From assembly GCF_020085105.1 (NCBI RefSeq), contig NC_058048.1, forward strand, positions 7,684,862 to 7,748,861: a DNA stretch of 64,000 nt, written 5' to 3'. The stretch's first letter is position 1; every line of letters starts with the position of its first letter. This stretch comes from Siniperca chuatsi (lineage: Eukaryota; Chordata; Actinopteri; Centrarchiformes; Sinipercidae). Below the pieces are notes generated by a model. It ran no database searches. It was not told the DNA's origin and was given only the letters and a program-made list of their open reading frames with translations. Below, in pieces: positions 53,401 to 61,806 of the stretch. The translations under genes and the position numbers were made by a program.

Positions 53401-56400
53401 CAAGGTGTGTCTTCAAATGTCTTGTTCTATCCAACCTACATCCCAGATATTTAATTTACTGTCACATATGACAAAAGTAAAAAAACATGTCACATCCAAG
53501 AAGCTAGAACCAGTAAATGTTGAGCATTTTTGCTTTAATGACTGAAAGAAAAACGGAAAATATTAATTATCAAAATTGTTTCTTTTCTTTCGATCGACTA
53601 ATCAATTAAACAACTAATTGTTTCAGATCTCCGTTAAAGTCCTTCTCTTCAAGTTCCAACTTTCAGCTTTAGGAGTCGTAAACATCTTGTGCTCCTGATA
53701 TCAAATCTGATGAATTAAAAAAAAAAAAAAGGTAATTAATTAATTAACCTGATCAATAAATCTTGCAGTGCTCAGTTTCAAGAGTCACTTTATCAAAACG
53801 CTTCATTACATTCTTAGAGATTTTCTAGAGGAGTGGAATGATTTCTATCAATAGAAACTCAACCTGTACCTGTATTCACAGCTGACATTAACATTGAAAC
53901 AGTCCAAACTTGTCTATGAATGTGTAGGATTACTTATATAGTAGAAATCACTTTACTGGAATGTTTCTGAAGTGAAAGTCTTTAAAAATTAGTCAAGTAT
54001 GAATTCTGTATGTACCTTAATTTTTTCTGCCCTCTCTCTCTTCCTCTGTCTCTCCGTTTTCTTCTCTGCCAGTGAGATGGCTCCCACTGCCACGTCCTCC
54101 TCTTCTCCCTCTTCCCCATTAGGAGCCGCTTCTTCTTCGTTCTCCTCTTCTACCAGGCCTTCCACCTGCTCTCTGAAGACCGTCTCCTGCAGAACACACG
54201 TTGGATAAAATCAAAGATCCAAATTTCCACAACATTAAGAATAAACCAAAGACGATGGACGAGCTGGAATAATCATCTGTACCTCTGTTGCTGTGTCTTC
54301 TCTGTTGACAGCCAGCTGTCTCTCTATTTTGTCTGCCTCCTTTTGTTTCTTGACCTCCACCTCATGGGCCTCCTGCAGCAAGGCCTGGGTTCACAGAGAG
54401 AGGGAGGAGAGGAGAGAGATCAGTCAGTCGATGCTGGTCATTACAACAAGATAAACAATGAACAACATGTTATTGTTTTGGAAATTAAATGAATTAACAT
54501 AAATAACTTTTTAATCAAAACATAAATGAACTGCTTTTGTACTGGATAAACCCAACAGCAAATCACAACAAACGCAAGACCTCTAAAAAAAAAAGGTCAT
54601 ACGAAGGTTGTACGAGCTTTAGTATCACTTGTTAACGAGTAACGGTCCACTGTTTAAAATGACTGTACATTTAAAATGCTGATGCCTAGCCAGTAGTAAG
54701 TCTGTAGGTTGTAGAGCCGCGACTCACCTGATGGGAGAAGAAGTCTGGGTTGTAGGATCCTCCAGGAGCGATCACCTCCACAGCAGGAAGCACAGACGGC
54801 TTCTCATTTAACTTCTCTGGACGCTGACAAAACAGTGATGCAGCCACATTGATCAAACTCAAACCGCCACACATAACATAAAACATTAGTCCCCTGCTGG
54901 CGGCTCATTAGAGGAAATCAAACTGTAGAGGGATGTTTACTTTAACCAGTCACTTAAATCTCTCACAATAACCGACATTTATTCTCACCTTGACACGCTT
55001 CTTGCCCGTCTGCTGAAGGTACCAGGGGTCAGCTGCATCTTTGTCTACATTAAAAAGAAAAATTGGTTTCAAATATGAGCATTTACGTGTGCTAAAGACA
55101 GCTGATCGGAATTTGGCGGCAAACATTAGCGCAAAAGTCCACATTTTCAAAATAATGTAGCTGCAAATCTATGATCAGTTCAGATTCCTGTACGTTGTTC
55201 AATTTTTAGTTCGTACAGCTGCCAGAAAGATTGGGTTTAAAAAGGATGAGTGTGACTATCGTAACACATTTCTCTTTTGGATCCCCCTGATCACCATCAG
55301 CTGGCAGACACAAGAGTCTTGGTTTAGCTGAAGAACTCTTTAAAATATTCATCCACTTGCATCGTGCCCACATCTCAAGCTCTGATCGCGTTTGCCTGCG
55401 GAGCAAACATGATACTGTACACTTATCCCAACTGTATGACAAATGCAGCTTAGGTTTAGCCTCTAACTCCCACATGGAAGGACCCACGGTCCAAGAGATG
55501 CACATTTTAGGTTATTATGTTCTTATCAAATTCTTATGAATGATTAACAACCTGTTTATTACCAACATCCCTATTTTGGACATTTGGATCTTAACATAAA
55601 CTCTATACATTTATTTCTACATGTGTATCCTCAGATCCCAGATGACCATTCACACAACGGTAGTCTGAGCTCCGTGTTGCTCTTCACATTCCCATGAAGG
55701 AAATACTGGGAGCGCAAGGATGGGATCATCACTGGACGGACGGACAGACAGAGACAGACAGACAGAGCACTCAAACTCAACTCACACTCTTGTCCCCACA
55801 TGTCATAGTAGTCTCTGTCTGGGTTGTTGTTGGCCTCTGTCACTGCCTTCTTGGCCGTCCTGTCGAGCGGCCGTCTGTTCAGCAGCTGTTTCTGCCTCCG
55901 TGGCACCACGCCTTTGGCTGCCAGCTGCTCTGCCTTCTGGGCAATGCGACGGAGTTTCTTGGCATTAGGTTGCTGATAGGCCAGCACACTGCAAAAGCAA
56001 AAGCAGCAACTAGCACACTAAATGTTTCGGCCTGTTTGATTTGACACTGTCTACTTCATGATGCATGTTTGCATAATCCTCAGATCGCAGGACACCATTT
56101 ACACAACAGTCTCCCGAGCTCCTGTGTGTTGTCTTCACATTCCCATGAAAGAAATACTGGGAGCGCAAGAATGAGATCATCACCGGACACACTCAAAACA
56201 TTTAAATAAAACAAATACAAGGCTGATTTTTCAATATATTTTAAAAATACTCAGATTTAACAGACACATATATGAGGTTGCTCCAAAAATAACATGATCC
56301 TTTACTAACAGACTTAAGGAACCTCTTCCTCTAGTCAGGTCAGAGGTCAGATACAATGTAACACCATGAAAACAGTCGGCCAGTCCCCTTGCCCACAGAC

Positions 56401-59120
56401 ATTTCATGATTCTCATTTCTCTGATTGGTGGTGGTGTACTTACTATGCCCCCGTTACTAGGGTTGCCAACCATCCTGTAAATTACAGAATTGTCCCATAG
56501 TCGGAAACTAAAAGACATGTTCCGTATTGAACTGATACGGGACGCGCTTTTGTTCTGAATTTTTGTGAATCAATTCAGTGCAAGTCTATGGGAGAGAAAT
56601 ATTAAGACAGGGTGATTTGTATGAGAAACCCTCCTGCTCTGTTATCCCTCAGCCTGACTGCCATGTTGTTCCACTACCCAAACAGAGAAGCGTTGTTTTG
56701 TTGACAATCATCCATGCCAAGTTTCCCTTAAGACCCTCTTGATTTATAAAACATCTAAAATAAGCAAGTTCACTATGTGAGTGCCTTTGTACATCAACAG
56801 TAGATGAAAATGTAGGATTCATGAATGACGTTTGGTGAGTAAGCAGAAAACACTGCTCTTACCGTTTACAAATCACCACTAATTAATGTCCTCTCGCATC
56901 CCACACTGCATCATCATAGGTCGGTTTCTCATACAGACCACCCTCCGCCCAGCCCCGCCGACGTTACGTATTTCCATTTCAGAAAGCTGGGAACCCTACC
57001 TGTTACTCCAATACATTCAGCACAGAAATTAATGACTGACATATCCGGTTATGGCTGTTATTAAGCTATATGCACTTAGCGTACAGTGACTTAAAAAACA
57101 GAAAAAACTCTGGGTTGGTTCACATGATAAATTGTGTTAAATGACAATACCACAAAATTCATAATGAGTCATTAAAGATGTTACATCATATATATCATGG
57201 AAAGCATAATGTCCACTGTTTTTGTAACTAGAGACTTCAGTTACCAGTCGCTTTACCATACCACTGTTCCCACATACTGAACTACTGAGCTGCCTGATTC
57301 ACACATACTGTAGCCTACTTAAGAACTGAATCCAACCCAGAAAATAACATTTGAGAAGGAAACTGGCCTCTGTTTCTCCTGACATTGTCTTTACAATTAA
57401 GGATGCTGAATCTAGCCATAGAAGAGGAGTAAACGGCAAAAGGGCCGTGATGGATACTGACTCTTTAGGTGGTGGAACGAGGGAGTCATGCTGCAGGATC
57501 AGGTCTATCCTCAGAGGACGTGACGCCTTCCCTTTCCTCTTCTTCTTCTCCTCGACAGGCTCTGCTATTTCACAGAGACATACACGTTATTTAGATTCAG
57601 CATCAGGCAGACACTTACATACATATGTATTTATAGAAGGATGTCAGAAAACAACTATCAAACTGGATAGTTGCTCATTTGTATTTAATTTACATATGTG
57701 CAACTCAATTTCTACTAATTGTAATATGTGTAATTACATATTTACCCTTCTGTTCAGCTTTCTTAGGTTGTCCAACATCCAAAAAGAACAAACTGTCATC
57801 TGACTTCTCAGACAGCAGACCCCTGAAATACATAAAGATCACATCACGTCACATTTTAGACTTACAGCTGAAGAAGCCGCTTTTTCCAACGTTTTGTTTA
57901 CAACTATCAATTATTTTCATGATCAATTAATCTGTTGAGTATTTTTTTTCCCAAGTAACTGATTAACCATGTACCATTTAAAATGTCAGGCAATAATAAA
58001 AATAAATAAAGCCATAAAGTTCCAAGAGACCAAGGTGACATCTTCAAATAGCTTGTTTTGTCCGGCCAATAGTCCAAAACCCCGAGATATTCAATTTACA
58101 AATGATACAAAAGACAGAAAAGCGGTAAATCCCCATATTCCGGATCTGCAACCAGCAAAAGGTTTTAAGTTTTGCTTGATAAAAAAGGTTTGAACGGTCA
58201 ATCGGTGATCAAAATTATTGTCCATTAATTCTATTAGTCAACTAATTGAATAATCATTTCAGCAGTTGTACTCAGGGTGCAAAATGTACTTTTTTGTCCA
58301 CCGGCCAAACGGTTAGTGAATGTTCAAATCTTTCCATCCACTCAATAAGTCACCATTGTTTTTTTTTGGCTGGTGAGTGAAGCATATCTACCAGCTACTT
58401 GGATATTTTACCAGCTGCTAATTTTGTGCCCTGCTTATATTACTCTCATGGACTTAGACACGGATTGCAGAATTTTGGGAATTCTAGTGAATCGACACAA
58501 GCACTGTAGCCTGATGAGTCTTTTACAGACACGCAAACGGTGCATAACACACTGGCCCTCAGCTTCAGCACTAGCTGACTGACTTGTTGTTTAGCAAAGC
58601 AACTTGAACTCCCTGATTTTGTGACTGGATTCTGTCTCCATGACCATCATCGAGAAGAACGACATTTTAGATAATAAAAACAAAATGTCAAACCACACAG
58701 GACTGGCCAAGCTGTTATAAAAAAGATACAGACAACGTTTTGAATACCCCTGATACGTGGGGGAGGCGACGACAGACAACGGGACATAAACCTGCAAAAC
58801 TTCAACAAAAAATCCTGCATCACAGGAAACCTTATGGTAGACACTTTTATGAGTTTTATTTTAACGTTAACTTAACTCTTTGTCCTCCCCACATGGACAA
58901 CTAACTAAACTTACCCTGTGGTCCTCTCCTGGTGTCTCACGTCTTCTAAAAACGCATCTACATCATTTATGTCGCTGTGTTTGTTCCAGTTCTTTTTCTT
59001 ATTCTTGTTCACACGTTTTCTCCGACTACTGACCACGTCTGAAGAGTCTGAAGACGACTTAAAATTTAGAAAACCTGGCTGTGAAGCCACCACGCGTTTC
59101 AACCTCCTGGCCGCCGCCAT
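50401..59120 (-). CDS. nop53: NOP53 ribosome biogenesis factor (GLTSCR2 homologue), 12 coding exons
   Basis: This is a nucleolar factor for 60S subunit assembly that recruits the exosome helicase MTR4 and helps integrate the 5S RNP. Exons in transcript order: 59120-58915, 57822-57746, 57564-57462, 55988-55786, 55044-54989, 54823-54728, 54384-54283, 54186-54016, 53063-52888, 51142-51076, 50671-50595, 50461-50401 (TAG). All junctions are GT-AG and all phases agree. The total is 1395 bases and 464 residues, against 478 in human. Diagnostic parts: the [18 protein letters not shown] block; LFFLD at residues 80-84, the arch-interacting motif that binds MTR4; RPLRIDLIL; a YNPDF block; an acidic run at about 289-312; a long basic coiled-coil at about 250-397; and the ending EKRAFREIT. 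The start codon sits in a CAACATGGCGGC context, which is YY1-like. The exon 4 donor was set by phase: only GAGT/gtgagt keeps the frame open. Confidence 0.97.
51990..52270 (+). pseudogene. LINE reverse-transcriptase remnant in nop53 intron 9
   Basis: Short frames read HWLPVEF and, after a one-base shift, [13 protein letters not shown], a C-terminal ORF2 block common to fish L2/Rex-type non-LTR elements. The frame is broken immediately on both sides. It lies antisense to nop53. Confidence 0.6.
52436..52849. mobile_element. MITE in nop53 intron 9
   Basis: The ends GTTAAAAGGGCACT (52436-52449) and AGTAGCCCTTTAAC (52836-52849) are imperfect inverted repeats. The body has no coding capacity. A related left end (ttaaaggggcactc) occurs at about 35943 in the connexin intron. 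Confidence 0.65.
53303..53628. mobile_element. MITE of the TAGGGCTG family, in nop53 intron 8
   Basis: It starts TAGGGCTGTAACCAGCGATT and ends near CAACTAATTGTTTCAG, with subterminal runs of the kind 'cgattaatc'. The ends are imperfect inverted repeats. Related copies lie at 45838-46275, 57901-58270 and 62620-62849, with a fragment at 26370-26430. Confidence 0.7.
55627..55737 (-). ncRNA. C/D-box snoRNA candidate, copy A, in nop53 intron 4
   Basis: This is a diverged second copy of the snoRNA in intron 3. The terminal stem GTCC/GGAT, C box GTGATGA (55732-55726), D box CTGA (55634-55631) and the CTCCCAGTATTTCCTTCATGGG block are all kept, over about 111 nt. The bases just upstream of the D box differ from the other copy, so the two may guide different targets or one may be decaying. 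It lies about 580 nt from the next acceptor, which is less favourable for processing than its sibling. Confidence 0.6.
56076..56188 (-). ncRNA. C/D-box snoRNA candidate, copy B, in nop53 intron 3
   Basis: The minus strand shows a terminal GTCC/GGAT stem (56188-56185 with 56079-56076), a C box GTGATGA at 56183-56177 and a D box CTGA at 56083-56080. The total is about 113 nt. Inside is a conserved block GCTCCCAGTATTTC then TTCATGGGAATGTGAAGA, and an ACAACA/TGTTGT internal stem. It ends about 88 nt before the exon 4 acceptor, a typical spacing for intronic C/D snoRNAs. Mammalian NOP53/GLTSCR2 hosts SNORD23, so this is probably its homologue, but identity to SNORD23 was not checked by alignment. 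Confidence 0.7.
57901..58270. mobile_element. MITE of the TAGGGCTG family, in nop53 intron 1
   Basis: It shares 'attattttcatgatcaatta', 'aaaatgtcaggcaataat', 'ccaaggtgacatcttcaaat', 'agatattcaatttac' and a closing 'caactaattgaataatcatt' with the other copies. The first few terminal bases have decayed. Confidence 0.65.

Positions 59121-60777: not shown

Positions 60778-61806
<1,029 letters not shown>

What the first reader, a model, noticed from the sequence alone, without database searches (positions are those of the whole stretch)
55627..56188. Duplicated C/D snoRNA in two neighbouring nop53 introns, with different guide regions
Two copies of 111 and 113 nt keep the C box, D box, terminal GTCC/GGAT stem and a central CTCCCAGTATTTC block. 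The roughly ten bases upstream of the D box have diverged (CATCTGGGAT against GTCCTGCGAT). Mammalian NOP53 hosts one snoRNA, SNORD23. A tandem intronic duplication followed by guide divergence would be a small case of a new modification guide arising. The copy in intron 3 has ideal spacing to its acceptor; the copy in intron 4 does not.
Basis: partly seen in the sequence, partly recalled or inferred. Interest (0 to 1): 0.7.

Follow-up and report, generated by a model that had tools for sequence, protein, structure and literature searches.

The report
Duplicated snoRNA, likely U6 methylation guide
Two copies of a small nucleolar RNA whose mammalian counterpart has no listed target sit in neighbouring introns of a fish gene, and both keep a stretch complementary to the splicing RNA U6, so they likely guide a U6 methylation for which a 2021 review lists no guide.

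Summary
Two box C/D snoRNAs (111 and 113 nt, minus strand) lie in introns 4 and 3 of nop53 in a fish, by protein match Siniperca chuatsi. The closest Rfam family is SNORD23, far below its cut-off. The genome search found two copies. ORFs from other fishes that read through the introns show the same pair around the same exon in six contigs, so the duplication is old and both copies are kept.

The stronger signal is the block after the C box. CAUCCUUGCGC (copy A) and CAUUCUUGCGC (copy B) pair with U6 65-75; the RF00603 consensus keeps 9 of these pairs. The only listed 2'-O-methyl in that stretch is Am70. If CUCC is box D', the fifth nucleotide upstream faces A70. I found no listed guide for U6 Am70 and no listed target for SNORD23. 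I propose that SNORD23 guides U6 Am70 and that both copies do so.

Against: box D' is poor, and an array of variant U6 genes in this fish mismatches the element. Copy B's 5.8S match is private to Siniperca. No expression or methylation data.

The parts
55627..55737 (-). Copy A, box C/D snoRNA of 111 nt in nop53 intron 4
   Evidence: copy A read in frame inside a NOP53 model of Caranx
56076..56188 (-). Copy B, box C/D snoRNA of 113 nt in nop53 intron 3
   Evidence: orthologues in ORFs
55726..55732 (-). Copy A box C, GUGAUGA
56177..56183 (-). Copy B box C, GUGAUGA
55712..55722 (-). Copy A U6-antisense element CAUCCUUGCGC (11 Watson-Crick bp with U6 65-75)
56163..56173 (-). Copy B U6-antisense element CAUUCUUGCGC (same pairing with one G.U; one further pair to U6 A76)
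55709..55712 (-). Copy A proposed box D' CUCC (2 of 4 letters of CUGA); shares its first C with the element
   Evidence: inference
56160..56163 (-). Copy B proposed box D' CUCC
   Evidence: inference
55681..55687 (-). Copy A box C' GUGAAGA (6 of 7 letters of RUGAUGA)
56132..56138 (-). Copy B box C' GUGAAGA
55631..55634 (-). Copy A box D CUGA
56080..56083 (-). Copy B box D CUGA
55635..55644 (-). Copy A D guide CAUCUGGGAU
   Evidence: no match of 9 bp or more covering it in the panel
56084..56095 (-). Copy B D guide GUGUCCUGCGAU, 12 bp (one G.U) with 5.8S 72-83
   Evidence: not conserved
55786..55988 (-). nop53 exon 4, between the two snoRNA introns

Best explanation
Both copies have the form of intron-encoded box C/D snoRNAs homologous to SNORD23, and they likely guide fibrillarin to methylate the 2'-hydroxyl of A70 in the internal stem-loop of U6 snRNA. 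Shown by sequence: the C/D architecture, the shared host gene, the U6-antisense element after the C box in both copies and in the mammalian SNORD23 consensus, its compatibility in other fishes, and the target letters in two canonical U6 genes of the same genome. Inferred: each RNA is released from its intron and assembled with fibrillarin; the ten nucleotides before a degenerate box D' (CUCC) pair with U6 66-75; the fifth nucleotide upstream of D' selects A70. On this reading the duplication gives two sources of one U6 guide, while the half before box D is freer to change. U6 as the partner is the firmest inference; the exact nucleotide rests on a weak box D'.
For: U6 pairing: copy A 11 Watson-Crick bp with U6 65-75, copy B 12 bp with one G.U, RF00603 consensus 9 bp. 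Nulls for the C-to-C' segment: 0 of 3000 and 3 of 3000 shuffles as long; by energy 0, 4 and 1 of 5000 shuffles as low for A, B and the consensus. Of three perfect U6-antisense 11-mers on both strands of the 64 kb, one is in this slot. The block is the part outside the boxes best shared by A, B and the consensus. Two U6 genes of the same genome carry GCGCAAGGATG. In 19 other-fish copies, 121 of 209 element positions must pair with U6, 1 cannot, 87 are undetermined. A70 is the only listed 2'-O-methyl in U6 65-75, and a 2021 table names no guide for it (passages of PMC7960923). SNORD23 is listed without target in PMC3349704 and PMC8881200, and without predicted rRNA target in PMC12931454.
Against: Box D' CUCC matches CUGA at 2 of 4 letters, and in the mammalian consensus the same register gives CCCC, 1 of 4. 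The consensus has 9 bp and a mismatch next to D'. It pairs as well with U6atac (9 bp, -17.3 against -16.2 kcal/mol). Energies are not specific: the consensus D side reaches -21.7 with 5.8S through a bulged duplex. Copy B has a longer match (13 bp, one G.U) to U5 that covers its D box. With the whole snoRNA shuffled, 3 of 1000 (A) and 5 of 1000 (B) do as well. In this fish 36 of 48 U6-family matches form an array on C10; in the four loci that I read the array genes have CTGCGAAAGGATG (one CTGCGAAAAGGATG), A in place of C68, which mismatches the element. The other-fish ORFs were found by similarity to these peptides. SNORD23 assignment is far below Rfam's cut-off. Vertebrate 28S was not scanned. 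No RNA data.
Confidence: 0.55

Rival explanations
1. The element is conserved for another reason: the RNA acts on a target that I did not scan (28S of vertebrates, mRNA) or in processing, and the U6 match is coincidence.
For: Vertebrate 28S and mRNAs were not scanned; 3 of 1000 shuffles of the whole copy A match U6 as long; chance matches of similar length to U5 and 18S are present; box D' is poor.
Against: The match lies in the guide slot, is shared with mammals, keeps pairing in copy B by a G.U, and covers a methylated nucleotide without a listed guide. Yeast 25S gives no match of 10 bp for the element.
Confidence: 0.25
2. The partner is the minor-spliceosome RNA U6atac, whose stem-loop shares CAAGGAUG, or both U6 and U6atac.
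For: CCAUCCUUG pairs 9 bp with U6atac 40-48 in copy A and in the mammalian consensus, where the energy is slightly better than with U6.
Against: Both fish copies pair better with U6 (-21.8 against -17.6; -20.0 against -12.1 kcal/mol). PMC13109388 speaks of the lack of 2'-O-methylations in U6atac (passages).
Confidence: 0.08
3. One reading: copy B has become a new guide through its D element, with 5.8S rRNA as target.
For: 12 bp with one G.U to 5.8S 72-83, abutting the D box; 4 of 20000 random draws and 10 of 5000 shuffles of the guide do as well against 5.8S alone.
Against: D+5 points to C76, not to the known Gm75 (SNORD96A). None of 7 informative copy B orthologues can form the 12 bp. 12 of 1000 shuffles of the whole copy B match 5.8S as long, and the guess was tested against several RNAs.
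Confidence: 0.1
4. Copy A is not processed because of its position in the intron, so only copy B makes snoRNA and the pair is a gene plus a silent copy.
For: 586 nt from D box to the exon against 91 nt in copy B.
Against: Copy A orthologues in ten other-fish ORFs keep the element compatible with U6, with one position that cannot pair. Siniperca copy A keeps all boxes and the stem.
Confidence: 0.15

Closest known systems
SNORD23 (HBII-115), RF00603, in mammalian NOP53/GLTSCR2
   Same: Same host gene (mouse host listed as GLTSCR2 in PMC5333149), C/D form, block CCAUCCUUGC after the C box, CUGAGG at the end.
   Different: 22.6 and 19.7 bits against a cut-off of 64, the copy B match covering only 60 nt; two copies instead of the one listed in mammals; middle part unlike; longer U6 pairing.
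U6 guides SNORD7, SNORD8/9, SNORD67, SNORD94, SNORD10
   Same: C/D snoRNAs that guide 2'-O-methylation of U6 (table in PMC7960923).
   Different: Their sites are A47, A53, C60, C62 and C77; none is listed for A70. I compared no sequences of theirs.
Multi-copy C/D snoRNA genes outside placental mammals (SNORD87: four genes in zebrafish and Xenopus, one in human)
   Same: Extra copies of a vertebrate C/D snoRNA in fish are a described trend (PMC3349704, passages).
   Different: The passages that I saw say nothing of SNORD23 copies or of U6.
SNORD96A, 5.8S Gm75
   Same: Copy B's D guide pairs with the same 5.8S stretch; SNORD96A is predicted for Gm75 (PMC7812721).
   Different: Register one nucleotide off, not conserved; SNORD96A letters are recalled, not from a call.

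Membership tests
Box C/D snoRNA | Box C (RUGAUGA), box D (CUGA) and a terminal stem | tested here: met
   GUGAUGA, CUGA, GUCC/GGAU in both copies
Box C/D snoRNA | Internal C' and D' boxes | tested here: inconclusive
   C' GUGAAGA good in both; D' CUCC has 2 of 4 letters
Box C/D snoRNA | Intronic location in a host gene | tested here: met
   nop53 introns 3 and 4
Box C/D snoRNA | Stable RNA bound by fibrillarin, NOP56, NOP58, SNU13 | not testable with these tools
   no expression or binding data
SNORD23 (RF00603) | Rfam gathering score of 64 bits | tested here: not met
   22.6 and 19.7 bits; snoZ266 elsewhere scores 22.0, so these scores alone are near chance. I therefore call them homologues by host gene and block, not Rfam members
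SNORD23 (RF00603) | Host gene NOP53 and block CCAUCCUUGC after box C | tested here: met
   copy B has one change in the block
U6 2'-O-methylation guide | About 10 bp or more of antisense next to D or D' | tested here: met
   10 bp before the proposed D' in both fish copies; 9 bp in the mammalian consensus
U6 2'-O-methylation guide | Fifth nucleotide upstream of D/D' faces a methylated nucleotide | tested here: inconclusive
   A70 if D' is CUCC; D' itself is weak
U6 2'-O-methylation guide | Methylation lost without the snoRNA | not testable with these tools
   bench test
5.8S guide (SNORD96-like) | D+5 on a known 2'-O-methyl, pairing conserved | tested here: not met
   D+5 is C76, known site Gm75; 0 of 7 informative copy B orthologues can form the 12 bp

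The most novel reading that the evidence does not exclude
SNORD23, listed without a target, is the missing vertebrate guide for U6 Am70. In percomorph fishes the gene was duplicated into the two introns flanking one nop53 exon. Both copies kept the U6 guide at D', the D side was freed, and in the mandarin-fish lineage a single substitution in copy B completed a new guide to 5.8S C76: an old snRNA guide caught acquiring an rRNA target.
Probability: 0.1. Interest if true: 0.8.

Novelty: new member of a known kind. Interest (0 to 1): 0.58.

Why it matters
U6 is the catalytic RNA of the spliceosome. Its 2'-O-methyl groups depend on LARP7, a protein linked to Alazami syndrome (reference titles). 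Of eight sites, Gm54, Cm63 and Am70 have no guide in a 2021 table, while SNORD23 has been listed without a target. One conserved element would join the two orphans and makes both questions testable with one knock-out. The fish pair adds a natural duplication in which the U6 element is kept and the other half varies. If true, changes in SNORD23 level, such as those reported in joint ageing, would bear on splicing and not on ribosomes.

Tried and rejected
Helix-34 acetylation guide (snR4-like): considered after passages of PMC5464676. For copy A, copy B and the consensus, no duplex of 10 bp or more (at most one G.U) fell in the h34 region of 18S among the matches printed; dropped.

5.8S guide: looked strong in Siniperca alone and fell when other fishes were read.

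Scans of viral contigs (15 stretches) and genome contigs (90 stretches) for the C box plus element gave viral and bacterial contigs; I computed no null for them, did not examine them one by one and used none.

rRNA of this fish: 28S strings gave nothing in viral contigs or in the own assembly; 5.8S is there once, degenerate. Vertebrate 28S therefore stayed unscanned; yeast 25S stood in.

Free folding of the whole RNAs gave no significant stability (z -1.50 and +0.59). The architecture was obtained with boxes and guides held unpaired and shows compatibility only.

Full report
WHAT IS THERE. On the minus strand lies nop53: Pfam Nop53 PF07767 at E 9.2e-64, NOP53 in solved structures at 1.9e-70, and 100% rounded identity to NOP53 of Siniperca chuatsi (P0001). 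Exon 4 is 55988-55786. Intron 3 carries copy B (56076-56188, 113 nt) and intron 4 carries copy A (55627-55737, 111 nt). Both have box C GUGAUGA, box D CUGA, a GUCC/GGAU stem, a box C' GUGAAGA and a 6-bp hairpin before C' (boxes and guides held unpaired). They share 96 of 117 alignment columns. Copy B's D box is 91 nt from the exon, copy A's 586 nt. A DNA search of the own genome (718.8 Mb) with copy A gives two matches, itself and copy B at 84%.

WHICH FAMILY. At the gathering thresholds nothing in the window is reported. In a relaxed scan of 54000-58500, six matches are listed: SNORD23 (RF00603) is first (copy A, 22.6 bits) and third (copy B, 19.7 bits, covering 60 nt), against a cut-off of 64; snoZ266 scores 22.0 elsewhere, so these scores alone mean little. 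I rest the homology on host gene, architecture and the block after box C. In the alignment of A, B and the RF00603 consensus the run GUGAUGA-nnn-CAU-n-CUUGC-n-C-n-CC is shared.

WHAT THE BLOCK PAIRS WITH. With U6 the block forms 11 Watson-Crick bp in copy A (65-75), 12 bp with one G.U in copy B (65-76) and 9 bp in the consensus (67-75). Nulls: segment from C to C', 0 of 3000 (A) and 3 of 3000 (B); whole snoRNA, 3 of 1000 and 5 of 1000; energies of 17-mers, 0, 4 and 1 of 5000. Three perfect U6-antisense 11-mers occur on both strands of the 64 kb, one of them here. Other matches exist: copy B to U5 over 13 bp with one G.U, covering its own D box; A and B to 18S 1112-1122 over 11 bp with one G.U, in the D'-C' hairpin.

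U6 IN THIS FISH. Forty-eight U6-family matches were scored. Those on C12 and C13 have the highest scores and the letters GCGCAAGGATG. Thirty-six form an array on C10; in the four loci that I read, the array genes show CTGCGAAAGGATG, once CTGCGAAAAGGATG, so C68 is A and the element would have a mismatch there. Whether the array is expressed is unknown. This counts against a simple story in this species.

WHY A70. The only one of the eight listed U6 2'-O-methyl sites within 65-75 is A70 (lists in passages of PMC8599867, and PMC7960923). If D' is CUCC, the fifth base upstream is the U facing A70 in both copies; the last C of the 11-mer then belongs to D', leaving ten pairs. In the mammalian consensus the same register makes D' CCCC. 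A 2021 table gives no guide for Gm54, Cm63 and Am70. SNORD23 is without target in PMC3349704 and PMC8881200, and without predicted rRNA target in PMC12931454. Am70 is reported in human neurons (PMC12724518) and falls on LARP7 depletion (PMC13109388); passages only in all cases.

PRIOR ART, WITH LIMITS. The library holds 17 papers naming SNORD23. I read passages of five; twelve I know from the listing. A search for U6 snRNA, A70, snoRNA, methylation and SNORD23 listed 11 papers with at least four terms and none with all five. Am70 with U6 snRNA gave 12 papers; I read passages of three of them. Jorjani 2016, Gumienny 2017, Kehr 2014, Song 2025 and Huttenhofer 2001 are not held, nor did I see the supplement of PMC13109388. 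An earlier proposal cannot be excluded.

OTHER FISHES. A NOP53 model of Caranx melampygus (P0069) contains [24 protein letters not shown], copy A read in frame. Two searches with a chimeric peptide query gave P0121-P0132. In P0122, P0125 and P0128 the C box UGAUGA is printed WW, so UGA was read as W; this is inferred from the letters. By exon 4, P0130 fits Sparus (67 of 67) and P0131 Acanthopagrus (66 of 68). Six ORFs (P0121, P0122, P0123, P0124, P0125, P0128) hold B, exon 4 and A in this order; P0126 holds B and exon 4; P0069, P0129, P0130 and P0131 hold exon 4 and A; P0132 holds exon-3 letters and B; P0127 I could not place. In frame 2, copy B reads DL in 5 of 5 and copy A reads DP in 5 of 7 (DS in P0122, DH in P0124), by position and not by species, so the duplication precedes these lineages.

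CODON-CONSTRAINED TEST. For 19 copies outside Siniperca (10 A, 8 B, 1 unplaced), 121 of 209 element positions must pair with U6, 87 are undetermined and 1 cannot pair (copy A of P0128, opposite C66). The ORFs were found through similarity to these peptides, which inflates conservation; the four read in frame 1 are weakly constrained.

THE D GUIDES. Of 7 informative copy B orthologues, 5 allow GUCCUGGGAU before CUGA (P0123, P0124, P0125, P0126, P0128) and 2 do not (P0121, P0122). Of 7 informative copy A orthologues, 3 allow CAUCUGGGAU (P0122, P0128, P0129) and 4 have one forced change each (P0121, P0125, P0130, P0131). Siniperca copy B adds a G-to-C change not seen in those five. It completes the 12-bp match to 5.8S 72-83: 10 of 5000 shuffles and 4 of 20000 random draws do as well against 5.8S alone, 12 of 1000 for the whole snoRNA. 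D+5 points to C76, one off Gm75, and 0 of 7 orthologues can form it. I regard it as probably chance.

MECHANISM. Shown: two RNAs of C/D form encoded in two nop53 introns, both with antisense to canonical U6. Inferred: release from introns, assembly with fibrillarin, opening of the U6 stem-loop, pairing with U6 66-75, methylation of A70. That LARP7 links U6 to C/D snoRNPs is from literature passages. Copy A's distance from the exon may lower its yield; its retention in other fishes argues against a dead copy.

VERDICT. Observation confirmed. The duplication is old, and multi-copy C/D snoRNAs in fish are a known trend. The interesting part is the likely match of an orphan snoRNA to an orphan U6 modification, at 0.55.

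Noticed in passing
G000:C10:29997580-30041008 (L110-L113): Tandem array of 36 U6-family matches about 1.1 kb apart. Those read carry A in place of C68 and an altered 5' part. Possibly a variant U6 set or an array of pseudogenes.
   Followed up: partly
window 54000-58500: Rfam's SNORD23 model scores these fish homologues at 22.6 and 19.7 bits against a cut-off of 64, so fish SNORD23 would be missed by Rfam-based annotation.
   Followed up: partly
P0121-P0132 and P0069: Predicted proteins in public databases that are snoRNA and intron sequence read as protein, several with UGA read as W.
   Followed up: yes
window 56609-56635 and 56918-56944: Inverted repeat of 27 nt, 85% complementary, 282 nt apart, in nop53 intron 3.
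   Followed up: no
window 61413-61613 +: ORF with a histone H3-like stretch; the name is recalled.
   Followed up: no
L114: The assembly holds one degenerate 5.8S match and no exact 28S string, so its rDNA seems not to be assembled.
   Followed up: partly
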